64,000 nt of DNA. It comes from Nymphaea colorata. Lineage: Eukaryota > Streptophyta > Magnoliopsida > Nymphaeales > Nymphaeaceae. The notes under the pieces were generated by a model that saw only the letters and a program-made list of their open reading frames with translations, did no database searches and was not told where the DNA came from. The position numbers were made by a program, and so were the translations under genes. The stretch is from assembly GCF_008831285.2 (NCBI RefSeq), contig NC_045142.1, positions 997,001 to 1,061,000 of the forward strand, in the 5' to 3' direction. Shown here piece by piece: positions 1-30,610 of the stretch (position 1 is the first letter of the stretch; each line of letters starts with the position of its first letter).

Positions 1-1290
1 TTGGGATATAGTTGTGGTACTAGCGTAACCGGCATTATCCGAAGAGCAAGGCTGTGAAATCCTTCGAACATGCGACCCATAGTTCGATCACGGCTGCGTA
101 GTGCAACAAATAAAGTTGCTATAATACGCAACCTGTCTAATCAGATCTCTAGTTTATACTTCTCCCCTCTCCCTCTCTCTAAATCTTCATCTTTTTCACC
201 TATCCACCGAAGACCACGATCTCCTTTATCTTCGACAATTGAAACTTGAAGAAATTTCTTCAACCAACCTTAGAGTTGAGGTATTTCCGATGGATATTAA
301 GGACTTCTTCAAATTGTTCTTAATCCTTTTTCACTTGATCGACATCTCAATGCCAACAAAGAATTCATCACCTCAAGTTTCCATCAAATCTCAACTCCAT
401 TCACCATCGTTTAAGGAACTTATAATATATCTCCATCTGCCTTGATATTGACTTTGATTTCACATCATTTTCTCTTAGATCATCAGATCCTGTCCACTCC
501 AACATATCTCCTTCACGAGCGTAATCCCTATTGCAAGTTTCATATTCGCACGCCAATAACAAGCGACAAAGGAATAATACATGAGTCTAAGACGTACTAA
601 TAAAGCAAGACCTCATTTTCAACATCCACATCAATGTTCATCAAATCCATTTGCATCACCAATTCAGATCATCCTAGAACCCGAACTTTTTTTTCATAGT
701 AAATGTGCCTTATCAAAACCTCCACACTATCAGTGATTTTGGTTTATGAGATCTTCTACATTTATTGAGAATAGTATATTCCACTTGTAGCTCCCAATTA
801 GTGTCATATCCTATTTGAAAATTCTTGGACTAAAATAATGATGTTGGTCTAGATCAGTGGTCTACCTGATCTGAAGATCGTTGGATCAAAATCTGGCTAC
901 GACGTCGGATCAATGGTCATATCTGATTCCAGAATAGTTGGATTTGCTGGTTGTACATTTGGATCAGTGGTCTTATCTGATCCACAAATTGCTTCATTCG
1001 CATCTAGTTGTGGGTCAAGATCAGTGGCCTCACATAAAACGTAAATTAAGGATTTCTTTGGGTTCTGGTCATGGACTATGAGTCTTATCTGATTTGAGAA
1101 ATTGTTGAATTCAAATCATTTTGTGGGTCAAGATCAGTGGTCTTATCTGATCTAGAAATTGTTGGATTTGAACTTCGTTGCGAGATAGGATCGATGGTCT
1201 TATCTGATCCAGAAATTGTTGAATTGCATATATTGTTCATACGAACCAGCGGTCTTATCTGATCCGAAATTGTTGGATTTGGGATATGGT
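1..1290. repeat. Divergent left-edge satellite copy
   Basis: This partial first copy is the least like the others. Its first ~230 bases differ from the interior consensus by many substitutions as well as small indels. The remainder is close to consensus but carries a run of one- to four-base deletions, for example a shortened homopolymer stretch near 300-340 and a missing 4-base block near 1230. Two causes are possible. It may be a real variant monomer near the array boundary, or a poorly polished sequence end. The substitutions favour real divergence at the far left, while the scattered single-base losses favour consensus error. Confidence 0.8.
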
Positions 1291-3420
1291 TGTGCTATTA
1301 GCCTGCCAACATTATCTAAAAACAAGGCTGTGAAATCCTTTGAACACGCAACCCTCAGTTCGACCACGGCTGCGCAATGCAACAAATCAAGTTGCTACGA
1401 AACGCAAACTGTTAGATCTCTAGTTTTCTCCCTCTCTCCCTCTCTCTAAATCTTCATCTTTTTCACCTATCCACCGAAGACCACGATCTCCTTTATCTTC
1501 GACAATTGAAACTTGAAGAAATTTCTTCAACCAACCTTAGAGTTGAGGTATTTCCGATGGATATTTAAGGACTTCTTCAAAATTGTTCTTAATAACTCCT
1601 TTTTTCACTTGATCGACATCTCAATGCCAACAAAGAATTCATCACCTCAAGTTTTCCATTCAAATCTCAACTCCATTCACCATCGTTTAAGGAACTTATA
1701 ATATATCTCCATCTGCCTGATATTGACTTTGATTTCACATCATTTTTCTCTTAGATCATCAGATGCCTGTCCACTCCAACATATCTCCTTCACGAGCGTA
1801 ATCCCTATTGCAAGTTTCATATTCGCACGCCAATAACAAGCGGACAAAGGAATAATACATGAGTCTAAGACGTACTAATAAAGCAAGACCTCATTTTCAA
1901 CATCCACATCAATGTTCATCAAATCCATTTGCAATCACCAATTCAGATCATCCTAGAACCCGAACCTTTTTTTTCATAGTAAATGTGCCTTATCAAAACC
2001 TCCACACTATCAGTGATTTTGGTTTATGAGATCTTCTACATTTATTGAGAATAGTATATTCCACTTGTAGCTCCCAATTAGTTGTCATATCCTATTTGAA
2101 AATTCTTGGACTAAAATAATGATGTTGGTCTAGATCAGTGGTCTACTCTGATCTGAAGATCGTTGGATCAAAATCTGGCTACGACGTCGGATCAATGGTC
2201 ATATCTGATTCCAGAATAGTTGGATTGTGCCTGGTTGTACATTTGGATCAGTGGTCTTATCTGATCCACAAATTGCTTCATTCGCATCTAGTTGTGGGTC
2301 AAGATCAGTGGCCTCACATAAAACGTAAATTAAGGGATTTCTGTTGGGTTCTGGTCATGGACTATGAGTCTTATCTGATTTGAGAAATTGTTGAATTCAA
2401 ATCATTTTGTGGGTCAAGATCAGTGGTCTTATCTGATCTAGAAATTGTTGGATTTGAACTTCGTTGCGAGATAGGATCGATGGTCTTATCTGATCCAGAA
2501 ATTGTTGAATTGCATATGATTGTTCATACGAACCAGCGGTCTTATCTGATCCGAAATTGTTGGATTTGGGATATGGTTGTGCTATTAGCCTTGCCAACAT
2601 TATCTAAAAAACAAGGCTGTGAAATCCTTTGAACACGCAACCCTCAGTTCGACCACGGCTGCGCAATGCAACAAATCAAGTTGCTACGAAACGCAAACTG
2701 TTAGATCTCTAGTTTTCTCCCTCTCTCCCTCTCTCTAAATCTTCATCTTTTTCACCTATCCACCGAAGACCACGATCTCCTTTATCTTCGACAATTGAAA
2801 CTTGAAGAAATTTCTTCAACCAACCTTAGAGTTGAGGTATTTCCGATGGATATTTAAGGACTTCTTCAAAATTGTTCTTAATAACTCCTTTTTTCACTTG
2901 ATCGACATCTCAATGCCAACAAAGAATTCATCACCTCAAGTTTTCCATTCAAATCTCAACTCCATTCACCATCGTTTAAGGAACTTATAATATATCTCCA
3001 TCTGCCGTGATATTGACTTTGATTTCACATCATTTTTCTCTTAGATCATCAGATGCCTGTCCACTCCAACATATCTCCTTCACGAGCGTAATCCCTATTG
3101 CAAGTTTCATATTCGCACGCCAATAACAAGCGGACAAAGGAATAATACATGAGTCTAAGACGTACTAATAAAGCAAGACCTCATTTTCAACATCCACATC
3201 AATGTTCATCAAATCCATTTGCGATCACCAATTCAGATCATCCTAGAACCGAACCTTTTTTTTCATAGTAAATGTGCCTTATCAAAACCTCCACACTATC
3301 AGTGATTTTGGTTTATGAGATCTTCTACATTTATTGAGAATAGTATATTCCACTTGTAGCTCCCAATTAGTTGTCATATCCTATTTGAAAATTCTTGGAC
3401 TAAAATAATGATGTTGGTCT

Positions 3421-3880
3421 AGATCAGTGGTCTACTCTGATCTGAAGATCGTTGGATCAAAATCTGGCTACGACGTCGGATCAATGGTCATATCTGATTC
3501 CAGAATAGTTGGATTGTGCCTGGTTGTACATTTGGATCAGTGGTCTTATCTGATCCACAAATTGCTTCATTCGCATCTAGTTGTGGGTCAAGATCAGTGG
3601 CCTCACATAAAACGTAAATTAAGGGATTTCTGTTGGGTTCTGGTCATGGACTATGAGTCTTATCTGATTTGAGAAATTGTTGAATTCAAATCATTTTGTG
3701 GGTCAAGATCAGTGGTCTTATCTGATCTAGAAATTGTTGGATTTGAACTTCGTTGCGAGATAGGATCGATGGTCTTATCTGATCCAGAAATTGTTGAATT
3801 GCATATGATTGTTCATACGAACCAGCGGTCTTATCTGATCCGAAAATTGTTGGATTTGGGATATGGTTGTGCTATTAGCC
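3421..3880. repeat. Block of ~57-bp subrepeats inside each satellite unit (one unit shown)
   Basis: In this representative unit, subrepeats begin near 3421, 3478, 3534, 3591, about 3648 (degenerate), 3705, 3763 and 3819, a period of 56-58 bp. The shared core resembles gatcagtggtcttatctgat followed by a variable tail ending in attgttggattt-like sequence. The core has short inverted arms (GATCAG and CTGATC) around a 9-base loop, and includes TTATC, the complement of a GATA-type motif. The same block is present in every unit of the array, so the satellite is composite: a short minisatellite embedded in a longer unit. Confidence 0.9.
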
Positions 3881-5139
3881 TTGCCAACATTATCTAAAAA
3901 ACAAGGCTGTGAAATCCTTTGAACACGCAACCCTCAGTTCGACCACGGCTGCGCAATGCAACAAATCAAGTTGCTACGAAACGCAAACTGTTAGATCTCT
4001 AGTTTTCTCCCTCTCTCCCTCTCTCTAATCTTCATCTTTTTCACCTATCCACCGAAGACCACGATCTCCTTTATCTTCGACAATTGAAACTTGAAGAAAT
4101 TTCTTCAACCAACCTTAGAGTTGAGGTATTTCCGATGGATATTTAAGGACTTCTTCAAAATTGTTCTTAATAACTCCTTTTTTCACTTGATCGACATCTC
4201 AATGCCAACAAAGAATTCATCACCTCAAGTTTTCCATTCAAATCTCAACTCCATTCACCATCGTTTAAGGAACTTATAATATATCTCCATCTGCCGTGAT
4301 ATTGACTTTGATTTCACATCATTTTTCTCTTAGATCATCAGATGCCTGTCCACTCCAACATATCTCCTTCACGAGCGTAATCCCTATTGCAAGTTTCATA
4401 TTCGCACGCCAATAACAAGCGGACAAAGGAATAATACATGAGTCTAAGACGTACTAATAAAGCAAGACCTCATTTTCAACATCCACATCAATGTTCATCA
4501 AATCCATTTGCGATCACCAATTCAGATCATCCTAGAACCCGAACCTTTTTTTTCATAGTAAATGTGCCTTATCAAAACCTCCACACTATCAGTGATTTTG
4601 GTTTATGAGATCTTCTACATTTATTGAGAATAGTATATTCCACTTGTAGCTCCCAATTAGTTGTCATATCCTATTTGAAAATTCTTGGACTAAAATAATG
4701 ATGTTGGTCTAGATCAGTGGTCTACTCTGATCTGAAGATCGTTGGATCAAAATCTGGCTACGACGTCGGATCAATGGTCATATCTGATTCCAGAATAGTT
4801 GGATTGTGCCTGGTTGTACATTTGGATCAGTGGTCTTATCTGATCCACAAATTGCTTCATTCGCATCTAGTTGTGGGTCAAGATCAGTGGCCTCACATAA
4901 AACGTAAATTAAGGGATTTCTGTTGGGTTCTGGTCATGGACTATGAGTCTTATCTGATTTGAGAAATTGTTGAATTCAAATCATTTTGTGGGTCAAGATC
5001 AGTGGTCTTATCTGATCTAGAAATTGTTGGATTTGAACTTCGTTGCGAGATAGGATCGATGGTCTTATCTGATCCAGAAATTGTTGAATTGCATATGATT
5101 GTTCATACGAACCAGCGGTCTTATCTGATCCGAAATTGT

Positions 5140-5370
5140 TGGATTTGGATATGGTTGTGCTATTAGCCTTGCCATTATCTAAAACAAGCTGTGAATCCTT
5201 GAACGCACCTCAGTTCGACCACGTCGCATGCCAATCATTGCACGAAACGCAAACTGTTAGATCTTAGTTTTACTCCCTTCTCACTCTAATCTTCATCTTT
5301 CGACCACGCCGCAATGCAACAATCAGTTCTCGACCAACTGTTAGATCTCTAGTTTTCTCCCTCTCTCCTC
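5140..5370. repeat. Rearranged satellite junction
   Basis: One unit is about 60 bp longer than the rest. Between 5140 and 5370 the CT-rich, tgttagatct-containing part is present twice. The first version is degraded by many small deletions, and the second returns to consensus near 5338. This explains the 1350-bp interval between landmarks 4091 and 5441. It could be an unequal-exchange scar or an assembly join of two reads with uncorrected errors. Confidence 0.85.
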
Positions 5371-8300
5371 TCTCTAAATCTTCATCTTTTTCACCTATCC
5401 ACCGAAGACCACGATCTCCTTTATCTTCGACAATTGAAACTTGAAGAAATTTCTTCAACCAACCTTAGAGTTGAGGTATTTCCGATGGATATTTAAGGAC
5501 TTCTTCAAAATTGTTCTTAATAACTCCTTTTTTCACTTGATCGACATCTCAATGCCAACAAAGAATTCATCACCTCAAGTTTTCCATTCAAATCTCAACT
5601 CCATTCACCATCGTTTAAGGAACTTATAATATATCTCCATCTGCCTGATATTGACTTTGATTTCACATCATTTTTCTCTTAGATCATCAGATGCCTGTCC
5701 ACTCCAACATATCTCCTTCACGAGCGTAATCCCTATTGCAAGTTTCATATTCGCACGCCAATAACAAGCGGACAAAGGAATAATACATGAGTCTAAGACG
5801 TACTAATAAAGCAAGACCTCATTTTCAACATCCACATCAATGTTCATCAAATCCATTTGCGATCACCAATTCAGATCATCCTAGAACCCGAACCTTTTTT
5901 TTCATAGTAAATGTGCCTTATCAAAACCTCCACACTATCAGTGATTTTGGTTTATGAGATCTTCTACATTTATTGAGAATAGTATATTCCACTTGTAGCT
6001 CCCAATTAGTTGTCATATCCTATTTGAAAATTCTTGGACTAAAATAATGATGTTGGTCTAGATCAGTGGTCTACTCTGATCTGAAGATCGTTGGATCAAA
6101 ATCTGGCTACGACGTCGGATCAATGGTCATATCTGATTCCAGAATAGTTGGATTGTGCCTGGTTGTACATTTGGATCAGTGGTCTTATCTGATCCACAAA
6201 TTGCTTCATTCGCATCTAGTTGTGGGTCAAGATCAGTGGCCTCACATAAAACGTAAATTAAGGGATTTCTGTTGGGTTCTGGTCATGGACTATGAGTCTT
6301 ATCTGATTTGAGAAATTGTTGAATTCAAATCATTTTGTGGGTCAAGATCAGTGGTCTTATCTGATCTAGAAATTGTTGGATTTGAACTTCGTTGCGAGAT
6401 AGGATCGATGGTCTTATCTGATCCAGAAATTGTTGAATTGCATATGATTGTTCATACGAACCAGCGGTCTTATCTGATCCGAAAATTGTTGGATTTGGGA
6501 TATGGTTGTGCTATTAGCCTTGCCAACATTATCTAAAAAACAAGGCTGTGAAATCCTTTGAACACGCAACCCTCAGTTCGACCACGGCTGCGCAATGCAA
6601 CAAATCAAGTTGCTACGAAACGCAAACTGTTAGATCTCTAGTTTTCTCCCTCTCTCCCTCTCTCTAAATCTTCATCTTTTTCACCTATCCACCGAAGACC
6701 ACGATCTCCTTTATCTTCGACAATTGAAACTTGAAGAAATTTCTTCAACCAACCTTAGAGTTGAGGTATTTCCGATGGATATTTAAGGACTTCTTCAAAA
6801 TTGTTCTTAATAACTCCTTTTTTCACTTGATCGACATCTCAATGCCAACAAAGAATTCATCACCTCAAGTTTTCCATTCAAATCTCAACTCCATTCACCA
6901 TCGTTTAAGGAACTTATAATATATCTCCATCTGCCTTGATATTGACTTTGATTTCACATCATTTTTCTCTTAGATCATCAGATGCCTGTCCACTCCAACA
7001 TATCTCCTTCACGAGCGTAATCCCTATTGCAAGTTTCATATTCGCACGCCAATAACAAGCGGACAAAGGAATAATACATGAGTCTAAGACGTACTAATAA
7101 AGCAAGACCTCATTTTCAACATCCACATCAATGTTCATCAAATCCATTTGCGATCACCAATTCAGATCATCCTAGAACCCGAACCTTTTTTTTCATAGTA
7201 AATGTGCCTTATCAAAACCTCCACACTATCAGTGATTTTGGTTTATGAGATCTTCTACATTTATTGAGAATAGTATATTCCACTTGTAGCTCCCAATTAG
7301 TTGTCATATCCTATTTGAAAATTCTTGGACTAAAATAATGATGTTGGTCTAGATCAGTGGTCTACTCTGATCTGAAGATCGTTGGATCAAAATCTGGCTA
7401 CGACGTCGGATCAATGGTCATATCTGATTCCAGAATAGTTGGATTGTGCCTGGTTGTACATTTGGATCAGTGGTCTTATCTGATCCACAAATTGCTTCAT
7501 TCGCATCTAGTTGTGGGTCAAGATCAGTGGCCTCACATAAAACGTAAATTAAGGGATTTCTGTTGGGTTCTGGTCATGGACTATGAGTCTTATCTGATTT
7601 GAGAAATTGTTGAATTCAAATCATTTTGTGGGTCAAGATCAGTGGTCTTATCTGATCTAGAAATTGTTGGATTTGAACTTCGTTGCGAGATAGGATCGAT
7701 GGTCTTATCTGATCCAGAAATTGTTGAATTGCATATGATTGTTCATACGAACCAGCGGTCTTATCTGATCCGAAAATTGTTGGATTTGGGATATGGTTGT
7801 GCTATTAGCCTTGCCAACATTATCTAAAAAACAAGGCTGTGAAATCCTTTGAACACGCAACCCTCAGTTCGACCACGGCTGCGCAATGCAACAAATCAAG
7901 TTGCTACGAAACGCAAACTGTTAGATCTCTAGTTTTCTCCCTCTCTCCCTCTCTCTAAATCTTCATCTTTTTCACCTATCCACCGAAGACCACGATCTCC
8001 TTTATCTTCGACAATTGAAACTTGAAGAAATTTCTTCAACCAACCTTAGAGTTGAGGTATTTCCGATGGATATTTAAGGACTTCTTCAAAATTGTTCTTA
8101 ATAACTCCTTTTTTCACTTGATCGACATCTCAATGCCAACAAAGAATTCATCACCTCAAGTTTTCCATTCAAATCTCAACTCCATTCACCATCGTTTAAG
8201 GAACTTATAATATATCTCCATCTGCCTTGATATTGACTTTGATTTCACATCATTTTTCTCTTAGATCATCAGATGCCTGTCCACTCCAACATATCTCCTT

Positions 8301-11264
8301 CACGAGCGTAATCCCTATTGCAAGTTTCATATTCGCACGCCAATAACAAGCGGACAAAGGAATAATACATGAGTCTAAGACGTACTAATAAAGCAAGACC
8401 TCATTTTCAACATCCACATCAATGTTCATCAAATCCATTTGCGATCACCAATTCAGATCATCCTAGAACCCGAACCTTTTTTTTCATAGTAAATGTGCCT
8501 TATCAAAACCTCCACACTATCAGTGATTTTGGTTTATGAGATCTTCTACATTTATTGAGAATAGTATATTCCACTTGTAGCTCCCAATTAGTTGTCATAT
8601 CCTATTTGAAAATTCTTGGACTAAAATAATGATGTTGGTCTAGATCAGTGGTCTACTCTGATCTGAAGATCGTTGGATCAAAATCTGGCTACGACGTCGG
8701 ATCAATGGTCATATCTGATTCCAGAATAGTTGGATTGTGCCTGGTTGTACATTTGGATCAGTGGTCTTATCTGATCCACAAATTGCTTCATTCGCATCTA
8801 GTTGTGGGTCAAGATCAGTGGCCTCACATAAAACGTAAATTAAGGGATTTCTGTTGGGTTCTGGTCATGGACTATGAGTCTTATCTGATTTGAGAAATTG
8901 TTGAATTCAAATCATTTTGTGGGTCAAGATCAGTGGTCTTATCTGATCTAGAAATTGTTGGATTTGAACTTCGTTGCGAGATAGGATCGATGGTCTTATC
9001 TGATCCAGAAATTGTTGAATTGCATATGATTGTTCATACGAACCAGCGGTCTTATCTGATCCGAAAATTGTTGGATTTGGGATATGGTTGTGCTATTAGC
9101 CTTGCCAACATTATCTAAAAAACAAGGCTGTGAAATCCTTTGAACACGCAACCCTCAGTTCGACCACGGCTGCGCAATGCAACAAATCAAGTTGCTACGA
9201 AACGCAAACTGTTAGATCTCTAGTTTTCTCCCTCTCTCCCTCTCTCTAAATCTTCATCTTTTTCACCTATCCACCGAAGACCACGATCTCCTTTATCTTC
9301 GACAATTGAAACTTGAAGAAATTTCTTCAACCAACCTTAGAGTTGAGGTATTTCCGATGGATATTTAAGGACTTCTTCAAAATTGTTCTTAATAACTCCT
9401 TTTTTCACTTGATCGACATCTCAATGCCAACAAAGAATTCATCACCTCAAGTTTTCCATTCAAATCTCAACTCCATTCACCATCGTTTAAGGAACTTATA
9501 ATATATCTCCATCTGCCGTGATATTGACTTTGATTTCACATCATTTTTCTCTTAGATCATCAGATGCCTGTCCACTCCAACATATCTCCTTCACGAGCGT
9601 AATCCCTATTGCAAGTTTCATATTCGCACGCCAATAACAAGCGGACAAAGGAATAATACATGAGTCTAAGACGTACTAATAAAGCAAGACCTCATTTTCA
9701 ACATCCACATCAATGTTCATCAAATCCATTTGCATCACCAATTCAGATCATCCTAGAACCCGAACCTTTTTTTTCATAGTAAATGTGCCTTATCAAAACC
9801 TCCACACTATCAGTGATTTTGGTTTATGAGATCTTCTACATTTATTGAGAATAGTATATTCCACTTGTAGCTCCCAATTAGTTGTCATATCCTATTTGAA
9901 AATTCTTGGACTAAAATAATGATGTTGGTCTAGATCAGTGGTCTACTCTGATCTGAAGATCGTTGGATCAAAATCTGGCTACGACGTCGGATCAATGGTC
10001 ATATCTGATTCCAGAATAGTTGGATTGTGCCTGGTTGTACATTTGGATCAGTGGTCTTATCTGATCCACAAATTGCTTCATTCGCATCTAGTTGTGGGTC
10101 AAGATCAGTGGCCTCACATAAAACGTAAATTAAGGGATTTCTGTTGGGTTCTGGTCATGGACTATGAGTCTTATCTGATTTGAGAAATTGTTGAATTCAA
10201 ATCATTTTGTGGGTCAAGATCAGTGGTCTTATCTGATCTAGAAATTGTTGGATTTGAACTTCGTTGCGAGATAGGATCGATGGTCTTATCTGATCCAGAA
10301 ATTGTTGAATTGCATATGATTGTTCATACGAACCAGCGGTCTTATCTGATCCGAAAATTGTTGGATTTGGGATATGGTTGTGCTATTAGCCTTGCCAACA
10401 TTATCTAAAAAACAAGGCTGTGAAATCCTTTGAACACGCAACCCTCAGTTCGACCACGGCTGCGCAATGCAACAAATCAAGTTGCTACGAAACGCAAACT
10501 GTTAGATCTCTAGTTTTCTCCCTCTCTCCTCTCTCTAAATCTTCATCTTTTTCACCTATCCACCGAAGACCACGATCTCCTTTATCTTCGACAATTGAAA
10601 CTTGAAGAAATTTCTTCAACCAACCTTAGAGTTGAGGTATTTCCGATGGATATTTAAGGACTTCTTCAAAATTGTTCTTAATAACTCCTTTTTTCACTTG
10701 ATCGACATCTCAATGCCAACAAAGAATTCATCACCTCAAGTTTTCCATTCAAATCTCAACTCCATTCACCATCGTTTAAGGAACTTATAATATATCTCCA
10801 TCTGCCGTGATATTGACTTTGATTTCACATCATTTTTCTCTTAGATCATCAGATGCCTGTCCACTCCAACATATCTCCTTCACGAGCGTAATCCCTATTG
10901 CAAGTTTCATATTCGCACGCCAATAACAAGCGGACAAAGGAATAATACATGAGTCTAAGACGTACTAATAAAGCAAGACCTCATTTTCAACATCCACATC
11001 AATGTTCATCAAATCCATTTGCGATCACCAATTCAGATCATCCTAGAACCCGAACCTTTTTTTTCATAGTAAATGTGCCTTATCAAAACCTCCACACTAT
11101 CAGTGATTTTGGTTTATGAGATCTTCTACATTTATTGAGAATAGTATATTCCACTTGTAGCTCCCAATTAGTTGTCATATCCTATTTGAAAATTCTTGGA
11201 CTAAAATAATGATGTTGGTCTAGATCAGTGGTCTACTCTGATCTGAAGATCGTTGGATCAAAAT

Positions 11265-14200
11265 CTGGCTGCGACGTCGGATCAATGGTCATATCTGATT
11301 CCAGAATAGTTGGATTGTGCCTGGTTGTACATTTGGATCAGTGGTCTTATCTGATCCACAAATTGCTTCATTCGCATCTAGTTGTGGGTCAAGATCAGTG
11401 GCCTCACATAAAACGTAAATTAAGGGATTTCTGTTGGGTTCTGGTCATGGACTATGAGTCTTATCTGATTTGAGAAATTGTTGAATTCAAATCATTTTGT
11501 GGGTCAAGATCAGTGGTCTTATCTGATCTAGAAATTGTTGGATTTGAACTTCGTTGCGAGATAGGATCGATGGTCTTATCTGATCCAGAAATTGTTGAAT
11601 TGCATATGATTGTTCATACGAATCAGCGGTCTTATCTGATCCGAAAATTGTTGGATTTGGGATATGGTTGTGCTATTAGCCTTGCCAACATTATCTAAAA
11701 AACAATGCTGTGAAATCCTTTGAACACGCAACCCTCAGTTCGACCACGGCTGCGCAATGCAACAAATCAAGTTGCTACGAAACGCAAACTGTTAGATCTC
11801 TAGTTTTCTCCCTCTCTCCCTCTCTCTAAATCTTCATCTTTTTCACCTATCCACCGAAGACCACGATCTCCTTTATCTTCGACAATTGAAACTTGAAGAA
11901 ATTTCTTCAACCAACCTTATAGTTGAGGTATTTCCATGGATATTTAAGGACTTCTTCAAAATTGTTCTTAATAACTCCTTTTTTCACTTGATCGACATCT
12001 CAATGCCAACAAAGAATTCATCACCTCAAGTTTTCCATTCAAATCTCAACTCCATTCACCATCGTTTAAGGAACTTATAATATATCTCCATCTGCCTTGA
12101 TATTGACTTTGATTTCACATCATTTTTCTCTTAGATCATCAGATGCCTGTCCACTCCAACATATCTCCTTCACGAGCGTAATCCCTATTGCAAGTTTCAT
12201 ATTCGCACCCAATAACAAGCGGACAAAGGAATAATACATGAGTCTAAGACGTACTAATAAAGCAAGACCTCATTTTCAACATCCACATCAATGTTCATCA
12301 AATCCATTTGCGATCACCAATTCAGATCATCCTAGAACCCGAACCTTTTTTTTCATAGTAAATGTGCCTTATCAAAACCTCCACACTATCAGTGATTTTG
12401 GTTTATGAGATCTTCTACATTTATTGAGAATAGTATATTCCACTTGTAGCTCCCAATTAGTTGTCATATCCTATTTGAAAATTCTTGGACTAAAATAATG
12501 ATGTTGGTCTAGATCAGTGGTCTACTCTGATCTGAAGATCGTTGGATCAAAATCTGGCTACGACGTCGGATCAATGGTCATATCGGATTCCAGAATAGTT
12601 GGATTGTGCCTGGTTGTACATTTGGATCAGTGGTCTTATCTGATCCACAAATTGCTTCATTCGCATCTAGTTGTGGGTCAAGATCAGTGGCCTCACATAA
12701 AACGTAAATTAAGGGATTTCTGTTGGGTTCTGGTCATGGACTATGAGTCTTATCTGATTTGACAAATTGTTGAATTCAAATTATTTTGTGTGTCAAGATC
12801 AGTGGTCTTATCTATGTAGAAATTGTTGGATTTGAACTTCGTTGCGAGATAGGATCGATGGTCTTATCTGATCCAGAAATTGTTGAATTGCATATGATTG
12901 TTCATACGAACCAGCGGTCTTATCTGATCCGAAAATTGTTGGATTTGGGATATGGTTGTGCTATTAGCCTTGCCAACATTATCTAAAAAACATGGCTGTG
13001 AAATCCTTTGAACACGCAACCCTCAGTTCGACCACGGCTGCGCAATGCAACAAATCAAGTTGCTACGAAACGCAAACTGTTAGATCTCTAGTTTTCTCCC
13101 TCTCTCCCTCTCTCTAAATCTTCATCTTTTTCACCTATCCACCGAAGACCACGATCTCCTTTATCTTCGACAATTGAAACTTGAAGAAATTTCTTCAACC
13201 AACCTTAGAGTTGAGGTATTTCCGATGGATATTTAAGGACTTCTTCAAAATTGTTCTTAATAACTCCTTTTTTCACTTGATCGACATCTCAATGCCAACA
13301 AAGAATTCATCACCTCAAGTTTTCCATTCAAATCTCAACTCCATTCACCATCGTTTAAGGAACTTATAATATATCTCCATCTGCCTTGATATTGACTTTG
13401 ATTTCACATCATTTTTCTCTTAGATCATCAGATGCCTGTCCACTCCAACATATCTCCTTCACGAGCGTAATCCCTATTGCAAGTTTCATATTCGCACGCC
13501 AATAACAAGCGGACAAAGGAATAATACATGAGTCTAAGACGTACTAATAAAGCAAGACCTCATTTTCAACATCCACATCAATGTTCATCAAATCCATTTG
13601 CGATCACCAATTCAGATCATCCTAGAACCCGAACCTTTTTTTTCATAGTAAATGTGCCTTATCAAAACCTCCACACTATCAGTGATTTTGGTTTATGAGA
13701 TCTTCTACATTTATTGAGAATAGTATATTCCACTTGTAGCTCCCAATTAGTTGTCATATCCTATTTGAAAATTCTTGGACTAAAATAATGATGTTGGTCT
13801 AGATCAGTGGTCTACTCTGATCTGAAGATCGTTGGATCAAAATCTGGCTGCGACGTCGGATCAATGGTCATATCTGATTCCAGAATAGTTGGATTGTGCC
13901 TGGTTGTACATTTGGATCAGTGGTCTTATCTGATCCACAAATTGCTTCATTCGCATCTAGTTGTGGGTCAAGATCAGTGGCCTCACATAAAACGTAAATT
14001 AAGGGATTTCTGTTGGGTTCTGGTCATGGACTATGAGTCTTATCTGATTTGAGAAATTGTTGAATTCAAATCATTTTGTGGGTCAAGATCAGTGGTCTTA
14101 TCTGATCTAGAAATTGTTGGATTTGAACTTCGTTGCGAGATAGGATCGATGGTCTTATCTGATCCAGAAATTGTTGAATTGCATATGATTGTTCATACGA

Positions 14201-15180
14201 ATCAGCGGTCTTATCTGATCCGAAAATTGTTGGATTTGGGATATGGTTGTGCTATTAGCCTTGCCAACATTATCTAAAAAACAATGCTGTGAAATCCTTT
14301 GAACACGCAACCCTCAGTTCGACCACGGCTGCGCAATGCAACAAATCAAGTTGCTACGAAACGCAAACTGTTAGATCTCTAGTTTTCTCCCTCTCTCCCT
14401 CTCTCTAAATCTTCATCTTTTTCACCTATCCACCGAAGACCACGATCTCCTTTATCTTCGACAATTGAAACTTGAAGAAATTTCTTCAACCAACCTTATA
14501 GTTGAGGTATTTCCAATGGATATTTAAGGACTTCTTCAAAATTGTTCTTAATAACTCCTTTTTTCACTTGATCGACATCTCAATGCCAACAAAGAATTCA
14601 TCACCTCAAGTTTTCCATTCAAATCTCAACTCCATTCACCATCGTTTAAGGAACTTATAATATATCTCCATCTGCCTTGATATTGACTTTGATTTCACAT
14701 CATTTTTCTCTTAGATCATCAGATGCCTGTCCACTCCAACATATCTCCTTCACGAGCGTAATCCCTATTGCAAGTTTCATATTCGCACGCCAATAACAAG
14801 CGGACAAAGGAATAATACATGAGTCTAAGACGTACTAATAAAGCAAGACCTCATTTTCAACATCCACATCAATGTTCATCGAATCCATTTGCGATCACCA
14901 ATTCAGATCATCCTAGAACCCGAACCTTTTTTTTCATAGTAAATGTGCCTTATCAAAACCTCCACACTATCAGTGATTTTGGTTTATGAGATCTTCTACA
15001 TTTATTGAGAATAGTATATTCCACTTGTAGCTCCCAATTAGTTGTCATATCCTATTTGAAAATTCTTGGACTAAAATAATGATGTTGGTCTAGATCAGTG
15101 GTCTACTCTGATCTGAAGATCGTTGGATCAAAATCTGGCTACGACGTCGGATCAATGGTCATATCGGATTCCAGAATAGT
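11265..15180. repeat. Two-monomer higher-order duplication within the array
   Basis: Rare variants recur exactly two units apart. GGCTGCGACG (others have GGCTACGACG) is at about 11268 and 13847. A T in catacgaatcagcgg is at about 11620 and 14200. acaatgctg is at 11702 and 14282. ccttatagttg is at about 11916 and 14496. tatcggattcc is at about 12583 and 15164. Offsets are about 2579-2581 bp. The pair of monomers starting near 11.2 kb was therefore copied as a block to the adjacent position. A further variant (catcgaatcc) is shared by 14878 and 17460, again two units apart. Confidence 0.85.
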
Positions 15181-17649
15181 TGGATTGTGCCTGGTTGTAC
15201 ATTTGGATCAGTGGTCTTATCTGATCCACAAATTGCTTCATTCGCATCTAGTTGTGGGTCAAGATCAGTGGCCTCACATAAAACGTAAATTAAGGGATTT
15301 CTGTTGGGTTCTGGTCATGGACTATGAGTCTTATCTGATTTGAGAAATTGTTGAATTCAAATCATTTTGTGGGTCAAGATCAATGGTCTTATCTGATCTA
15401 GAAATTGTTGGATTTGAACTTCGTTGCGAGATAGGATCGATGGTCTTATCTGATCTAGAAATTGTTGAATTGCATATGATTGTTCATACGAACCAGCGGT
15501 CTTATCTGATCCGAAAATTGTTGGATTTGGGATATGGTTGTGCTATTAGCCTTGCCAACATTATCTAAAAAACAAGGCTGTGAAATCCTTTGAACACGCA
15601 ACCCTCAGTTCGACCACGGCTGCGCAATGCAACAAATCAAGTTGCTACGAAACGCAAACTGTTAGATCTCTAGTTTTCTCCCTCTCTCCCTCTCTCTAAA
15701 TCTTCATCTTTTTCACCTATCCACCGAAGACCACGATCTCCTTTATCTTCGACAATTGAAACTTGAAGAAATTTCTTCAACCAACCTTAGAGTTGAGGTA
15801 TTTCCGATGGATATTTAAGGACTTCTTCAAAATTGTTCTTAATAACTCCTTTTTTCACTTGATCGACATCTCAATGCCAACAAAGAATTCATCACCTCAA
15901 GTTTTCCATTCAAATCTCAACTCCATTCACCATCGTTTAAGGAACTTATAATATATCTCCATCTGCCTTGATATTGACTTTGATTTCACATCATTTTTCT
16001 CTTAGATCATCAGATGCCTGTCCACTCCAACATATCTCCTTCACGAGCGTAATCCCTATTGCAAGTTTCATATTCGCACGCCAATAACAAGCGGACAAAG
16101 GAATAATACATGAGTCTAAGACGTACTAATAAAGCAAGACCTCATTTTCAACATCCACATCAATGTTCATCAAATCCATTTGCGATCACCAACTCAGATC
16201 ATCCTAGAACCCGAACCTTTTTTTTCATAGTAAATGTGCCTTATCAAAACCTCCACACTATCAGTGATTTTGGTTTATGAGATCTTCTACATTTATTGAG
16301 AATAGTATATTCCACTTGTAGCTCCCAATTAGTTGTCATATCCTATTTGAAAATTCTTGGACTAAAATAATGATGTTGGTCTAGATCAGTGGTCTACTCT
16401 GATCTGAAGATCGTTGGATCAAAATCTGGCTACGACGTCGGATCAATGGTCATATCTGATTCCAGAATAGTTGGATTGTGCGTGGTTGTACATTTGGATC
16501 AGTGGTCTTATCTGATCCACAAATTGCTTCATTCGCATCTAGTTGTGGGTCAAGATCAGTGGCCTCACATAAAACGTAAATTAAGGGATTTCTGTTGGGT
16601 TCTGGTCATGGACTATGAGTCTTATCTGATTTGAGAAATTGTTGAATTCAAATCAATTTGTGGGTCAAGATCAGTGGTCTTATCTGATCTAGAAATAGTT
16701 GGATTTGAGCTTCGTTGCGAGATAGGATCGATGGTCTTATCTGATCCAGAAATTGTTGAATTGCATATGATTGTTCATACGAACCAGCGGTCTTATCTGA
16801 TCCGAAAATTGTTGGATTTTGGATATGGTTGTGCTATTAGCCTTGCCAACATTATCTAAAAAACAAGGCTGTGAAATCCTTTGAACACGCAACCCTCAGT
16901 TCGACCACGGCTGCGCAATGCAACAAATCAAGTTGCTACGAAACGCAAACTGTTAGATCTCTAGTTTTCTCCCTCTCTCTCTTTCTCTAAATCTTCATCT
17001 TTTTAACCTATCCACCGAAGACCACGATCTCCTTTATCTTCGACAATTGAAACTTGAAGAAATTTCTTCAACCAACCTTAGAGTTGAGGTATTTCCGATG
17101 GATATTTAAGGACTTCTTCAAAATTGTTCTTAATAACTCCTTTTTTCACTTGATCGACATCTCAATGCCAACAAAGAATTCATCACCTCAAGTTTTCCAT
17201 TCAAATCTCAACTCCATTCACCATCGTTTAAGGAACTTATAATATATCTCCATCTGCCTTGATATTGACTTTGATTTCACATCATTTTTCTCTTAGATCA
17301 TCAGATGCCTGTCCACTCCAACATATCTCCTTCACGAACGTAATCCCTATTGCAAGTTTCATATTCGCACGCCAATAACAAGCGGACAAAGGAATAATAC
17401 ATGAGTCTAAGACGTACTAATAAAGCAAGACCTCATTTTCAACATCCACATCAATGTTCATCGAATCCATTTGCGATCACCAATTCAGATCATCCTAGAA
17501 CCCGAACCTTTTTTTTCATAGTAAATGTGCCTTATCAAAACCTCCACACTATCAGTGATTTTGGTTTATGAGATCTTCTACATTTATTGAGAATAGTATA
17601 TTCCACTTGTAGCTCCCAATTAGTTGTCATATCCTATTTGAAAATTCTT

Positions 17650-17818
17650 GGACTAAAATAATGATGTTGGTCTAGATTGGTGGTCTTCTTTGATATGAAG
17701 ATCGCTATCTGGCTGTGAGATCAGATCAGTGGTCTTGTCTAATCCAAGAATTTTTGGATTTGTGTATGATTGTAGATCTGGATCAATGGTCTTATCTAAT
17801 CTAGAAATTGTTTTTTAA
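17650..17818. repeat. Degenerate right end of the satellite array
   Basis: After a normal unit, the sequence at about 17675 changes to a poorly conserved version of the 57-bp subrepeats (gatcagtggtcttgtctaat, gatcaatggtcttatctaat) for about 150 bp, then becomes unique at about 17815. Decayed repeats at an array edge are expected, because terminal copies take little part in homogenisation by unequal exchange. This appears to be the true right boundary. Confidence 0.85.
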
Positions 17819-18399
17819 TAACGGGTTCAAAAAAAGAGGCATGTAAAACAAAAAAGATTATGTAACAAATTGGATTTAGGTAACATTGAAGTCAGCACTA
17901 TTTTGAGTGTGTTAAAAAGAAGAGACATGATAGTGCCTCTTTCTTCTTATAAGTTATTGGATACATCTGACAGTGCCTCTTTCTTCTTGTAAGTTATTGG
18001 ATACATCTGACAATGAAAGAGTTCATACACAAGTGGTATATAAACCCAACACTAGAAACACATTGGATTAGATGACATCAAGGTAGTGTACATCAGAAAC
18101 AAACACACACATGTAAACCATAAGCTGCAAAGGCAAAACTATAAGGCAGAAAGCATAACAAATAAAAGATAAAAGGTTGCCAAATTAAGTTTCTATACTA
18201 GAATAAAATTATATGGTACATACAAAGATCTTTTTTTTCACCTATTATTTCATTTTCTGTAGGCTAACATTTCTAGTAAAAGTTATTCAACTATGTACCA
18301 GTAACAACAATTACACTCGAGTAAGAGTTTGAGCATAAACATTGGAATTTTGGAATTTGAATATGCTCCATTAAAAAAATATAGACAAAAGCAACATTT
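17819..18399. other. Unique AT-rich spacer, no gene seen
   Basis: Apart from the 40-bp duplication, I see no coding sequence, RNA gene or recognisable element between the array edge and the AAA-ATPase relic. Confidence 0.6.
17931..18012. repeat. Two-copy 40-bp tandem duplication
   Basis: A 40-bp segment beginning agtgcctctttcttctt and ending atacatctgac occurs twice in a row, with a single difference (ataag versus gtaag). It lies just outside the satellite boundary. Confidence 0.9.
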
Positions 18400-18958
18400 T
18401 GTTGTACTGGCTACCGAACAATCTCCACACTATCTGGGCCTGCTACATTTGTCTTGAAGAAAGTAAACTGAATAGACAACAAAAGATTTCTCGACATCTT
18501 TGAGAAACAAGAACTCTCATTGGGGACAAGCTGGGATAAAAAAAAACCCCATTTTAAATTGCAGAAAAGGCATGCACACATGTATGTAGGCACACAAGTA
18601 TGTATATGTGTATGACAATTCAATAACAACTAAAGGTACCTCAAACATTGCATTGGTCGAAATCTTGTCAATTTCCTCACTGCAAGAACTTTCTAAATGC
18701 AAGTAGTCAGCTGCAATACAAAACAAAATAGTCATCAAAATAGAGGAGAGAAAGAGAGAGAGACATCATCAAATGACTGAGTAAAGCCACTCGTTGAAGA
18801 AGAACAAACCACTACAAAAGAAGCTGTGATTTTCCACAGATAGACCACCAAGGTCATCTCCCTCCAGAACTGGATTATCAAATCTAACACAGACTTTAGA
18901 GGACCCATTTTTTTCATAAGCAAGCAGCACTTTGCCTTTACTACCATAGGATGGACCC
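18400..18958 (-). pseudogene. AAA-ATPase (large plant type) pseudogene fragment
   Basis: Three consecutive exon relics survive on the minus strand. Exon A (18958-18810) encodes GPSYGSKGKVLLAYEKNGSS followed by VRFDNPVLEGDDLGG. Exon B (18710-18640) encodes a stretch including CSEEIDKISTNAMFE. Exon C starts at 18530 and gives LVPNES, then FLKDVEKSF only after a frameshift, followed by an in-frame TAG. Splice sites are intact: TTTCAG before A, GTTTGT after A, TTGCAG before B, GTACCT after B, TCCCAG before C. Order and wording match the region before the AAA module in the large plant AAA-ATPases of the Arabidopsis At1g02890/At4g02480 group. No Walker A or Walker B exon and no N-terminal exons were found nearby, so this is a truncated, non-functional copy. 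Confidence 0.8.
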
Positions 18959-18959
18959 C

Positions 18960-19370
18960 TGAAAACCATAAGGAATGATATACATATTAGCACAGGGCAT
19001 ACTAACATGAACAGTCAGTAAACACTAACAAGTTATGCCAAATTTTGTTACACCATACCAATTAGAAATTTAATAATGAGTTCATTAATTAATGCCCATC
19101 TGAAACCAACTGAATCTTGGAAAGGAAAAAGATGGTAAAGCAAGTTTTCCAATCAGAACGCTTTGCCCTTTGCAAGATTACTTGAATGGTGTCACCTTGC
19201 AAATTAATGTAGGCATGCATGATCAAGTATGAAAATTAGAGTAAAAAAAAGCTCAGTTTGCTAATCTTCACATGGCTGTCAAAGTTAATAACAGCCAGTT
19301 GGGCAGTGTATCCACTAAAGGATGAAGAAGCTAAATGCCACCATATTGGTATTATGGGACCTCTCTTTCC
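18960..19370. other. Spacer upstream of the AAA-ATPase relic, no feature seen
   Basis: I looked for the exon that should precede GPSYG in the AAA-ATPase family and saw nothing convincing. No other gene-like signal is present. Confidence 0.5.
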
Positions 19371-19371
19371 C

Positions 19372-19600
19372 TTCGGCCCTGTTTGATTGCAAGGAAGAAT
19401 TTAACGTGGTAAATTTACCACGGTAAATTTTTTTGAAAAAAAATACAGGATGAAATTTTACCCTCTTCCGATTTGAGGCCCCTTTTGATTGCAGGAAAGT
19501 TTTTTGCAGGGTGAAATTAACTGTGTTTGATGCACATGGTAGTTTTTTGCAAGGTAAATTTAATTGTGTTTGGTGCACAGGGTAAAAAATAGGAGAGACT
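19372..19600. mobile_element. Possible transposon end with direct repeats and a palindrome
   Basis: The phrase ggccctgtttgattgc at 19375 is repeated imperfectly as ggccccttttgattgc at about 19482. A perfect 18-bp palindrome, CGTGGTAAATTTACCACG, lies at 19405-19422. The motif tgtttgatgcaca near 19527, with a variant near 19568, has a related copy (ctttgatgcacc) at about 21892, beyond the GA-rich minisatellite. These features resemble ends of non-autonomous plant DNA transposons and would bracket about 2.5 kb. I could not pair clear terminal inverted repeats or a target duplication, so the class and borders are open. Confidence 0.35.
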
Positions 19601-21287
19601 TTTTTCCTGACCGTTAGAAATTGTTGTTTTATTGGTTCTCCTCCAATTTCACGTGGGTAGAAATTGAAAGATGATGTAAACAAATTATTGATTAAAGCAA
19701 AACTGTTGCCAAATACAGTCAAGTTAATATAACAAAATTCCTGCAATTGTGAGGTCTAGAGGGCCTATACACAGTTGAAAGTTCAAGACCCTGGATCAAG
19801 TCACAACTTAGCCATTTCCTTCTCTAGTTTTTCTCTAGTGTTGTCTTAGCAAGGCTTGGTGGTTGGGCTCACTCTCATCATCCTAAAAAAATGGTGCCAT
19901 GATAGTGGTGAACGAAGGTGCAGGAATAATGATGGAGATGAAAGAATAGTGTCAATAAGAACTAACAATGGTGATCCTTATGTGACAGTCATGGCTAGGG
20001 AAAAAGGATTTGTATTTGGTGGTGGTGAAACTTGAAAGGATGATCAAGAACGATTGGGCATAATGATGATAATTATCATGATAGACAGATAGAAGTAGAA
20101 TAGATTCAACTGCCCTTCAAACTGGTGTGCCAATTGGCATCATCACAGGCATCTATCCATAGGCTACCATATGATACATACACAAACCTTAAAGGAACTG
20201 TATATCTCCAGTCAACAGCCCTATCAATTGACAATGCCAGTAACCTATGATGTCATAGTAACAATCAACAACTCTTCATAACTCTTCCCCAAAACCTGCT
20301 ATAGTGCCTCCTGATTCCTGAATTCTCACCCAATTTTCCATATAAAGAAGTCCCCAGTGTAGCTAAGTACAGCAAATTACCTTCTAAATGAATTGAAGTA
20401 TATGCTCCTTGCAAACGTGGGTTGCAGCTGAACCACACTATTCAACTATTTCAACAAACAATCTAACAAAAGTGGGTTGCAGATGAACCCAAACAGATCC
20501 AGGACTCCATGCATATATATGTCCGCTTTATACTGAAATAATTGGTAAGAGAATCTAATGATTCAGAACAGACATTATCAAAGGAAGCTATAACTTTATT
20601 TAAAGTAATACCCCAGAAATGATGGAGAAGTATCCTGAATCCCTGATGCAGTGTATCATGATTGTGGAGATCCCATAACCATCAATATGATTTATGATAA
20701 CCATTTATGCCAAAGGCAACAGGAACAACAAAATGTGGCAGTTAACATGTGACCACTGTATTCTTACTTCTTATTGCCATCAAGGAGTAATAAAACGAAG
20801 ACCCGAGCCTGTTGAATTACCAAAGAAGCAACTAATTGTAATATAAACATATGATTTCCTCTACTATGCAAATTGGACCACAATTGATGTTAAAGTACAT
20901 AAAGCAAAAAACTCCATCGGGATTAACAACTTTAGTCATAAACATGTGTGATTGCCATTATCTTGCTCCCAAAATGGTGATGTTCAACACCTACCTCCAT
21001 ATATACAAGTCCTCAAAGAAACAGAGACATTGTTAATGTACTCAGCTAGACGATAAACTACAACAAAAAGGGCGTTTCTCAGGAATATACATGCTTGAAT
21101 TGCAGAAAGCACAAAGTAAAGATTCAGTGAGCGACATACCTGAGTAAAGCAGCAGCGAAGAGGGATAAACCCAAATTTCCTGTTGAAGATGGTGCCTAAG
21201 TCCTGCGTGTGAAGAGAGAGAGATGGGTTATTGACAGAACGTGTGTGTGAGAGAGCGACAGAGAGACGCATAGGGCTCACCTGGGGC
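19600..21287. other. Spacer without recognised genes
   Basis: Only short, mostly non-ATG ORFs occur here, with no family resemblance on either strand. It may be the interior of the transposon-like element suspected between 19.37 and 21.96 kb. Confidence 0.5.
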
Positions 21288-21870
21288 TGCAAGCGGGCGA
21301 CGTTGGGGAAGGAGGGAGCGAGACAGCAGCGAGAGAGGAAGGAGGGAGCGAGGTTGGGGAAAGAGGAGAGAGAGGAGGGAGCGAGAGAGCAGCGAGAGAG
21401 GAAGGAGGGAGCGACGTTGGGGAAAGAGGAGAGGAAGGAGGGAGCGACGTTGGGGAAAGAGGAGAGGAAGGAGGGAACGAGAGAGCAGCGAGAGAGGAAA
21501 GGAGGGAGCGACGTTGGGGAAAGAGGAGAGGAAGGAGGGAGCGAGAGAGAAGCGAGAGAGGAAAGGAGGGAGCGACGTTGGGGAAAGAGGAGAGGAAGGA
21601 GGGAGCGACGTTGGGGAAAGAGGAGAGGAAGGAGGGAGCGAGAGAGGAAAGGAGGGAGCGACGTTGGGAAAAGAGGAGAGGAAGGAGGGAGCGAGAGAGG
21701 AAAGGAGGCAGCGACGTTGGGGAAAGAGGAGAGGAAGGAGGGAGCGAGAGAGCAGCGAGAGAGGAGAGGAAGGAGAGAGCAGCCGAGAGAGAGCGAGAGA
21801 GGAGGGGAATCGGCACTTCGACGGTGGGGAAAGCAGAGAGAAAAGGAGGGGAACGAGAAAGTTTGCCATT
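21288..21870. repeat. GA-rich minisatellite
   Basis: About 580 bp of strongly purine-rich DNA on the plus strand is built from variably ordered blocks: gacgttggggaaagaggaga, gaaggagggagcga and gagagagcagcgagagag. The gacgttgggg block occurs about nine times, at intervals of roughly 30-63 bp. Because the repeat lacks stop codons, it gives long ORFs on both strands (Arg/Glu/Gly-rich on plus; Ser/Leu/Pro-rich on minus). These are compositional artefacts. A long purine:pyrimidine tract of this kind can adopt triplex structure and often assembles poorly. Confidence 0.9.
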
Positions 21871-22450
21871 TTACCGGGTGGATTTTAACGGCCTTTGATG
21901 CACCACTTAACGAGTGAAATTCTCCCTCGCCGTACGTATTTCACCCGATGCGCATACAACCTGGCTTAAGAAAGGGAATTAGGGACCCTTTCATACAACA
22001 AGAAAATTTCAAAAACAATGAATCACACAAGTTTCCAATATTGTTACGAACGTCACAAATTTCCATGGTCAATCAATTAGCTCCGTAGCACTCTTCTATT
22101 AAACCCATGGTCTAAAAAACACCTAACATTTTGGGGACATACAAAATCACAGAGAAGCTTCAAGAGAAAGTTTGCCGTCATATGCAAGAATAAAATAGCA
22201 GTTGTTTATTATCTTTTCACTTAATGTAATCATAATTTAATCAAAATAAATTGAGAAACCTTACTAACCATTTTGAAGCATTCCTTTCTCCTCCTATTTT
22301 CTCCCAGATCGCGGAATCTGTCTTTGCTCTTTTTTCCTTATGAGCAGTAAGAGTAAGAGAAACAGGAAACTGAAGGATCAATAAGAAGAAGAGGAGCTGC
22401 TATAGGCAAGTTCAGTGATGGGAGGATAAAATAACAGAAAACATAGGCTA
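21871..22450. other. Spacer, no gene seen
   Basis: It contains the possible right end of the transposon-like element (about 21,890-21,965) and otherwise AT-rich unique sequence without supported features. Confidence 0.5.
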
Positions 22451-22645
22451 AAACCCTAAATAAATTTGCTCAAAGAAAAAGTTGCAGACCGATTATTTGC
22501 TTAGAAAAAGGCGCGATGATAATTTACGTAATAGAAAAAGAAGAAGAAGTTACCTTGTCTTGCAGAATTGCTCCAGCAAATCGACATCCTTACCGCTGTA
22601 GGGAAGCTCGAACAGAATGGAAGAAAGGACATCGATGATTTATTG
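22451..22645 (-). other. Unassigned possible exon with a telo-box nearby
   Basis: On the minus strand, 22634-22552 reads IIDVLSSILFELPYSGKDVD, continuing as a short Leu/Glu-rich stretch to CKTR. It ends at a good donor (AG, then GTAACTT). The frame has a stop just upstream (about 22637) and no in-frame ATG, so if it is an exon its start is missing. A telo-box, AAACCCTAA, lies at 22451-22459. I do not recognise the peptide. It could be the relic of another gene or chance. Confidence 0.2.
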
Positions 22646-25600: not shown

Positions 25601-26442
25601 CATCTGCCTCAAGGCCTATGGCTATCTTGACTTGTAGAGAAAAACAATGCCCTTGAGAATTGAACAGCGTCAGTGTATTAAACAGGCAAAAGCTCGCTCT
25701 GACTTTGTGAACTTCCTCGGCCAAACACCTCAGTTGAACCAGGCTACCAGCAAGCTTTCTCACTGAGCATCATGTAACATTATGCAGAATGTAATGCCAG
25801 ATATCAAATTAGAATTGCACCTTGTAGTAACAAATAGAACCTCTACATTTTTACAATGATGTCTTGCAGTTTGGCGCTCCTCATGAGAGTTTACGTTTCC
25901 TTTCAGTACATGTTCCCCATGTGCTATATTGGTTAGAATCATGAAAAGAGGACGGCCCGCCATCAGAAAAGGTGTTGCACCAAGTGGAAAACAGGGAACA
26001 ATTTTTACTGCTCATCAAATGAGCACAGAACATCTCTTCTTTATTCCATTATATTTTGAAGAATAACAAAAACTCAACCATAGACAGAGACGCATTACAT
26101 TTAAAAAATGAAAATAAAAACAAAATAAAAAATTCAAGGCGACGAGTCATTTGTAGCAGGGTCACGCAAAAAATTCCTGCCGGGACCATCGCAGGAACAA
26201 CCTGAGACTAGACGGCTTTCCAATTTCCTCCTGAGGAGAGAGGATTTTAGGCATTTGAAGGGGAAAACCTATCACCACCACCGACTCTCAAGTCCACACA
26301 TCAAAGTTGCAGTTAATCACTGACACCTTAAAGGAACCTGATCGACTTTCGGTGGAGAGCATCCGTTACTCTGGAAGATCACCGCCACTGTTATCAGCAA
26401 ACAAAAAACTTTATATGCCAATTTATGGCTAATATACGAAGA
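22646..26442. other. Long AT-rich intergenic region, no gene seen
   Basis: No supported coding sequence in 3.8 kb. Minor structure: a two-copy ~25-bp repeat (ctgcatctatgcca-like) at about 23,519-23,562, and three dispersed copies of a motif like gctttgatgcgtacaagt near 24,152, 24,190 and 24,330. ORFs here are below 95 codons and lack family resemblance. Confidence 0.55.
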
Positions 26443-29967: not shown

Positions 29968-30191
29968 GTCGCCTGCCGGACCCCAAACCGTGCGACGGTC
30001 ACCATCGCCACCTCCACCACCCCTGCCACCGTCCCTCCGTCCCCTCCCGCCCAAGGCGGGGCCCCTGTTATAATCCCACGTCCCCAGCTTAACCTACAAA
30101 GGAACCCCCGCTCTATTCCTTCCGAGATCTTTGTTGGGAACCGAAATCCACCTTCCCTTTCTCCCAACAATTCCGTCTCCCCGATGAACAT
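29928..30191 (-). other. Upstream ORF overlapping the DUF506 start
   Basis: An ATG at 30191 opens 87 codons ending at 29928. It runs in a different frame and past the assigned main ATG at 29967. If the transcript starts near 30.5 kb without a leader intron, this ORF would be met first. Two readings are possible: a translation-limiting uORF, or an undetected leader intron or alternative first exon that makes this sequence part of the real protein N-terminus. Confidence 0.4.
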
Positions 30192-30543: not shown

Positions 30544-30610
30544 GGGGAGGAACTTCGCGCCAGTTGACGAGAACCGATGCCCAAGATTTGAAAAATAACG
30601 GATGTGTCAC

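What the first reader, a model, noticed from the sequence alone, without database searches (positions are those of the whole stretch)
1..17818. Large composite satellite: 1.29-kb units each containing eight ~57-bp subrepeats
Two nested periods (about 1290 and 57 bp) in at least 17.8 kb of near-identical DNA are directly visible. Long satellite units with an internal minisatellite can arise by amplification of a spacer or transposon piece. I know of no described family with this sequence. It may mark pericentromeric, subtelomeric or knob heterochromatin.
Basis: partly seen in the sequence, partly recalled or inferred. Interest (0 to 1): 0.72.

Follow-up and report, generated by a model that had tools for sequence, protein, structure and literature searches.

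The report
Plant satellite with long composite unit
The first 17.8 kb is a real tandem array of a roughly 1.29-kb non-coding DNA unit, apparently from a plant, that carries eight degenerate 57-base sub-repeats; I found no match to its sequence in the few collections I could search, but long-unit satellites of this general kind are already known in plants.

Summary
Window 1-17813 holds 14 head-to-tail units (consensus 1291 bp); 11 of 14 differ from the consensus at 0-10 positions. Each unit carries eight 56-58-bp sub-repeats, only 44-74% alike: an old, decayed minisatellite inside a recently amplified larger unit. Three units are irregular. U01 starts divergent and then shows mostly deletions. 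U05 opens with a deletion-riddled partial copy, probably an assembly seam. U14 turns at about 17678 into diverged sub-repeats and ends at 17813. Copy number is therefore uncertain. The unit has no ORF beyond chance, no Rfam match, no CENP-B box, no Helitron end, no rDNA start motif and no convincing primer site. The sub-repeats' inverted repeat shows no covariation. The flank has PDDEXK_6 and kinase coding pieces and no LTR pair. Best reading: ordinary long-monomer satellite DNA, like the 687-2033-bp satellites of Vicia faba (PMC5895790, passages read). Species, genome copy number, chromosomal position and source sequence could not be determined. New member of a known kind; low interest.

The parts
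1..17813 (.). Tandem array, 14 units in one orientation, consensus 1291 bp
   Evidence: BLAST of unit 2561-3850; unit alignment; autocorrelation against permutations
1..169 (.). Divergent start of the first unit U01 (unit positions 6-165): 30 substitutions and 9 inserted bases, no deletion
   Evidence: the 5 deletions that one search counts here are only the leading gap, as the window starts at unit position 6
170..1273 (.). Rest of U01: 9 substitutions and 22 deleted bases, no insertion; looks like poorly polished sequence
5140..5330 (.). Likely assembly seam in U05: 5140-5300 copies unit positions 1-190 with 3 mismatches, 30 missing bases and 1 extra base; from about 5299 a second copy starts near unit position 88; U05 is 1350 bp long
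   Evidence: BLAST rows
6490..7780 (.). Representative unit U06, identical to the 1291-bp consensus
7351..7805 (.). Block of eight 56-58-bp sub-repeats seen in U06 (unit positions 862-1291, the eighth running 25 bp across the arbitrary unit border); commonest core GGATCAGTGGTCTTATCTGATCC
16813..17813 (.). Last unit U14: 6 substitutions up to unit position 865, then (from about 17678) three diverged sub-repeats (r1 from 17674, r2 from 17723, r3 from 17780) and the end of the array
17814..64000 (.). Flank without a further copy of the unit (blastn, E 1e-5); PDDEXK_6 piece (26443-27000, -), HSP70 piece (42356-42814, -), kinase pieces (52187-54685, +)

Best explanation
This is an array of non-coding satellite-type DNA with a long composite monomer, apparently in a plant genome. 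A block of about 840 bp of unknown origin lies beside an old 57-bp minisatellite. The joint segment was amplified head to tail, and the copies were kept alike by unequal crossing-over and/or gene conversion or by re-insertion of circular copies. Shown: the anatomy and the contrast of identities (sub-repeats 44-74% alike, 11 of 14 units at 99.2-100% to the consensus, outermost parts much more diverged). Inferred: the order of events and the amplification mechanism. I think it has no sequence-specific product of its own and acts, if at all, only as repeat-rich chromatin.
For: 14 units in one orientation. 11 of 14 units differ from the consensus at 0-10 positions; U06-U13 differ pairwise by 0.47% substitutions and 0.10% indel columns. 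Variants shared by non-adjacent units (A911G and C1263T in U09 and U11; G55T, G269T and T936G in U10 and U12) are what exchange or multi-unit duplication leaves. The right end is more diverged: r1 and r2 match the sub-repeats of the same position best (80% to s1, 75% to s2). No ORF above chance: longest 86 codons, reached by 86 of 200 shuffles. Long-monomer satellites are a described class in plants (PMC5895790, passages and part 1 of the Discussion read).
Against: Genome-wide abundance, part of the usual meaning of satellite DNA, is not measured: this could be one local array of about 14 copies. The visible flank looks genic rather than heterochromatic. r3 does not match its positional partner best (85% to s3, 88% to s6 and s7). 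The + strand of the sub-repeat block folds as RNA better than its shuffles (z -3.59, 0 of 100 shuffles; the other strand z -1.99, 2 of 100), which a pure bystander would not need, although a repeated inverted repeat gives this by itself and its pairs do not covary.
Confidence: 0.83

Rival explanations
1. Tandem array of a transposon piece (a refinement of the best explanation rather than its opposite): an LTR or 3' untranslated region with tandem sub-repeats, or a non-autonomous DNA element with sub-terminal repeats, multiplied in place.
For: Ogre/Tat LTR retrotransposons carry tandem sub-repeats in the 3' untranslated region and have given rise to satellites (PMC7004042, passages read). A minisatellite beside a unique block would fit such an element. 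The two blocks have opposite GC skew, as chimeric sequence can have (base counts).
Against: No primer-binding site clearly better than shuffles (best 3 mismatches of 12; shuffle means 3.28-3.86), no Helitron 3' end on either strand of the unit (the same search gave 5 and 2 hits in the two strands of the 46-kb flank), no LTR pair in the flank, no second copy of any part of the unit in the other 46 kb. The primer-site list is recalled, and these tests are weak for a piece of an element.
Confidence: 0.3
2. rDNA-spacer-derived satellite, as in tomato or potato.
For: IGS-derived satellites carry about 53-bp sub-repeats (tomato) or long monomers with sub-repeat clusters (~3-kb 2D8 of potato) (PMC2679016, passages read).
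Against: No rRNA match in Rfam at gathering score anywhere in the window; no Pol I start-like TATATA..GGG motif on either strand of the unit. The plant's own IGS could not be compared.
Confidence: 0.05
3. Partly an assembly artefact (compatible with the best explanation): the array is real, but its copy number and the irregular units U01 and U05 come from joining and poor polishing.
For: U01 after unit position 200 shows 9 substitutions, 22 deleted and 0 inserted bases. The first 161 bases of U05 lack 30 of 190 unit bases with only 3 mismatches, and are followed by a step back to about unit position 88.
Against: The other units carry distinct substitutions, and the right end passes into unique sequence, so a tandem array as such is not in doubt from the sequence. 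The first ~169 bases of U01 have too many substitutions (30, of which 23 transitions) for mere poor polishing.
Confidence: 0.6
4. A functional array, for example of hairpin RNAs or of protein-binding dyads in the sub-repeats.
For: The commonest core is an inverted repeat (7-base arms, 9-base loop); one search gives z -3.59 for the + strand as RNA.
Against: Over 11 sub-repeats (s1-s8, r1-r3) 79.2% of arm cells pair, a value reached by 420 of 500 shuffles; the covariation score is reached by 286 of 500. One of the eight (s4) keeps only 2 of 7 pairs (read from the alignment). No Rfam match.
Confidence: 0.04

Closest known systems
Long-monomer satellites of Vicia faba (17 families, 687-2033 bp; PMC5895790, passages and part 1 of the Discussion read)
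   Same: Non-coding plant tandem repeats with monomers around 1-2 kb and high identity between monomers
   Different: In that paper only VfSat8 of the 17 showed internal sub-repeats, and irregular ones; here eight sub-repeats at 56-58-bp spacing are present. No sequence comparison was possible.
Solanum long satellites (Sobo 4.7 kb, potato centromeric satellites up to 5.4 kb; as cited in the Discussion of PMC5895790)
   Same: Long, complex monomers
   Different: Most of those are said there to resemble retrotransposons or to be built from different genomic repeats; no such similarity was found here with the limited means at hand
IGS-derived satellites (tomato, potato 2D8; PMC2679016, passages read)
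   Same: Sub-repeats of about 53 bp (tomato) or long monomers with sub-repeat clusters (2D8)
   Different: No rRNA or Pol I start motif here; relation to the plant's own IGS untested
Ogre/Tat retrotransposon-derived satellites of Lathyrus sativus (PMC7004042, passages read)
   Same: Tandem sub-repeats as possible seed of a satellite
   Different: Here the sub-repeat is part of a larger amplified unit, and no LTR pair was found in the flank

Membership tests
Plant satellite DNA (long-monomer) | Head-to-tail array of a non-coding unit with high identity between units | tested here: met
   14 units, 11 of them at 99.2-100% to the consensus; no ORF beyond chance
Plant satellite DNA (long-monomer) | High copy number in the genome, long arrays | not testable with these tools
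   No genome held for the window; about 17.8 kb in this window, with uncertain count
Plant satellite DNA (long-monomer) | Chromosomal position (pericentromere, subtelomere, knob), CENH3 association | not testable with these tools
   Needs FISH or ChIP; the unit has no CENP-B box and no TTTAGGG
rDNA IGS-derived satellite | Similarity to rRNA genes or IGS | tested here: inconclusive
   No Rfam match, no start-like motif; IGS of the species not available
LTR-retrotransposon-derived repeat | Primer-binding site, LTR pair or coding domain | tested here: inconclusive
Helitron | 3' hairpin followed by CTRR | tested here: not met
   0 on either strand of the unit for stems of 6-11, loops of 2-6 and gaps of 3-12 bases

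The most novel reading that the evidence does not exclude
A species-specific satellite family, unrelated in sequence to any described one, whose dyad-bearing 57-bp sub-repeats drive its amplification or mark one centromere or heterochromatic block.
Probability: 0.05. Interest if true: 0.45.

Novelty: new member of a known kind. Interest (0 to 1): 0.2.

Why it matters
It documents a two-level tandem repeat in which an old, decayed minisatellite was caught in a recent amplification of a larger unit, with outer parts that keep an older state. It is useful for repeat masking and as a possible cytogenetic marker of the species. It does not change what is known about satellites.

Tried and rejected
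Matches elsewhere: the plasmid collection and exact patterns in viral contigs and prokaryote genome contigs gave none; these collections are not meant to hold plants, so this says little. The window's own genome is not held.

Hairpin or dyad function: the fold of the + strand of the sub-repeat block looked promising (z -3.59; the other strand -1.99; the remainder of the unit, 2561-3390, -1.28, 3 of 20 shuffles), but the pair count gave no support. Nucleosome-type 10-bp periodicity: 35 of 35 flank pieces scored at least as high as the unit. CENP-B box and TTTAGGG: none in the unit. tRNA genes: none in the window. Bacterial promoter/terminator scan: not relevant to a plant; 1 promoter-like site (shuffle mean 3.9) and 0 terminators (0.6).

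Species: I could not identify the plant. 'Plant' rests on the PDDEXK_6 piece, on kinase pieces in separate frames as if split by introns, and on general knowledge; it was not tested. Literature (open-licence library only): searches gave no paper; one search gave one listing (PMC7010299, listing only), which concerns maize centromeric retrotransposon RNA; some searches were general and, apart from the three papers named next, were seen as listings only. Passages were read in PMC5895790 (plus part 1 of its Discussion), PMC7004042 and PMC2679016.

Full report
Observation. The window starts inside a tandem array. One unit used as a BLAST query finds 14 consecutive copies between 1 and 17813, all in one orientation, and none in the remaining 46 kb at E 1e-5. 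The consensus is 1291 bp. Eleven of 14 units (U02-U04, U06-U13) differ from it at 0 to 10 positions; U06 and U07 are identical to it. Pairwise, U06-U13 differ by 0.47% substitutions and 0.10% indel columns. Both periods exceed permutation controls: 55.7% against at most 27.8% in 5 permutations for lag 1291, and 47.2% against at most 37.2% in 1000 permutations for lag 57 within the sub-repeat block.

Anatomy of the unit. About 840 bp, of which the last ~57 hold a degenerate extra sub-repeat (position 807), are followed by eight sub-repeats of 56-58 bp (unit positions 862 to 1291, the last running 25 bp over the arbitrary border). The one at position 1034 was placed by spacing; the motif scan with up to 6 mismatches found the other seven and the degenerate one. 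The eight are 44-74% alike. A 176-bp segment recurs 285 bp further on, five sub-repeats apart, at 73%, so the block grew partly by multi-unit duplication. The two blocks have different strand composition: C 24% and G 13% before position 862, C 16% and G 24% after it. This suggests a composite of two sources; that is inference.

Irregular units. U01 begins at unit position 6. Up to position 165 it has 30 substitutions (23 transitions, 7 transversions, counted from the list) and 9 inserted bases; from position 200 on it has 9 substitutions and 22 deleted bases, no insertion (the 5 deletions that one search counts before 165 are only the leading gap). U05 is 1350 bp long; its first 161 bases copy unit positions 1-190 with 3 mismatches, 30 missing bases and 1 extra base, and from about 5299 the sequence goes back to about unit position 88. 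I read the rest of U01 and the start of U05 as poorly polished or joined assembly, so the true copy number is unknown; the first 169 bases of U01 have too many substitutions for that and are probably truly diverged. U14 follows the consensus up to unit position 865 with 6 substitutions and then passes sharply into three diverged sub-repeats. r1 and r2 resemble the sub-repeats at the same position best (80% to s1, 75% to s2); r3 does not (85% to s3, 88% to s6 and s7). Differences of r1-r3 from s1-s3 are 19 transitions and 10 transversions. The right end thus looks like a remnant of an older unit that escaped homogenisation.

How it most likely works. Inferred order: a 57-bp minisatellite arose and decayed; a segment holding it and the 840-bp block was duplicated in tandem; the array grew and was homogenised by unequal exchange, gene conversion or re-insertion of circles, leaving the outer parts behind. 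Variants shared by non-adjacent units (A911G and C1263T in U09 and U11; G55T, G269T and T936G in U10 and U12) fit exchange or duplication of more than one unit. With a recalled plant substitution rate of about 6.5e-9 per site and year, 0.47% corresponds to roughly 0.4 million years since the inner units were last alike; this is a rough figure only.

Tests for a product or an origin. The longest reading frame is 86 codons, reached by 86 of 200 shuffles. No Rfam family at gathering score in the whole window, no tRNA gene. The commonest 23-bp core of the sub-repeats is an inverted repeat, and the + strand folds as RNA better than its shuffles (z -3.59, 0 of 100 shuffles; the - strand z -1.99, 2 of 100). 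But over 11 sub-repeats the arms pair no better than with shuffled partners (79.2%; 420 of 500 shuffles reach it) and the covariation score is ordinary (286 of 500). Slid versions pair less (14.5-50.6%), as expected for any inverted repeat. In s4 only 2 of 7 pairs remain; s5 keeps 5 of 7, three of them G-T (read). No CENP-B box, no TTTAGGG, no Helitron end, no Pol I start-like motif, no primer-binding site clearly better than shuffles, no 10-bp periodicity.

Surroundings. Ten open frames of the flank were sent to Pfam: five had no match at E 0.01; one is PDDEXK_6 (26443-27000, E 3e-40), one holds an HSP70 piece (42356-42814, E 9.1e-25), and three between 52187 and 54685 match successive parts of the protein-kinase profiles, the first two below Pfam's cut-off and the third above it for PF07714. 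No LTR-like direct repeat pair was found from 17700 to 64000 (only tandem repeats and microsatellites). This side of the array therefore looks genic. The other side is outside the window.

Compared with what is known. Long-monomer satellites are an established class. In Vicia faba 17 of 26 examined families had monomers of 687-2033 bp, predominantly pericentromeric, four of them in primary constrictions; only VfSat8 of the 17 had internal sub-repeats (PMC5895790, passages and part 1 of the Discussion). Satellites from Ogre sub-repeats (PMC7004042, passages) and from rDNA spacers (PMC2679016, passages) show two ways such units arise; neither origin is shown here. No paper was found by the core sequence, by '1290 bp', '1291 bp', '1.3 kb' or '57 bp' with sub-repeat terms (one unrelated listing), in an open-licence library only. 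I file it as a new member of a known kind, with genome-wide abundance and chromosomal position untested.

Noticed in passing
window 21307-21809: GA-rich minisatellite with periods of about 33, 53 and 64 bp.
   Followed up: no
window 19375-19500: Two MITE-like starts close together (GGCCCTGTTTGATTGCA at 19375, GGCCCCTTTTGATTGCA at about 19477). The MITE label is from recall and untested.
   Followed up: partly
window 59936-60387: Five copies of a 91-bp tandem repeat, 77% matches.
   Followed up: no
window 57068-57194: 51-bp repeat, 2.5 copies, 90% matches.
   Followed up: no
window 42356-42814, minus strand: Short HSP70 piece (65 residues matched, profile positions 164-225 of 599), possibly a fragment or pseudogene.
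   Followed up: no
window 31467-32464: Cluster of long TA and CT microsatellites with overlapping palindromic stretches.
   Followed up: no
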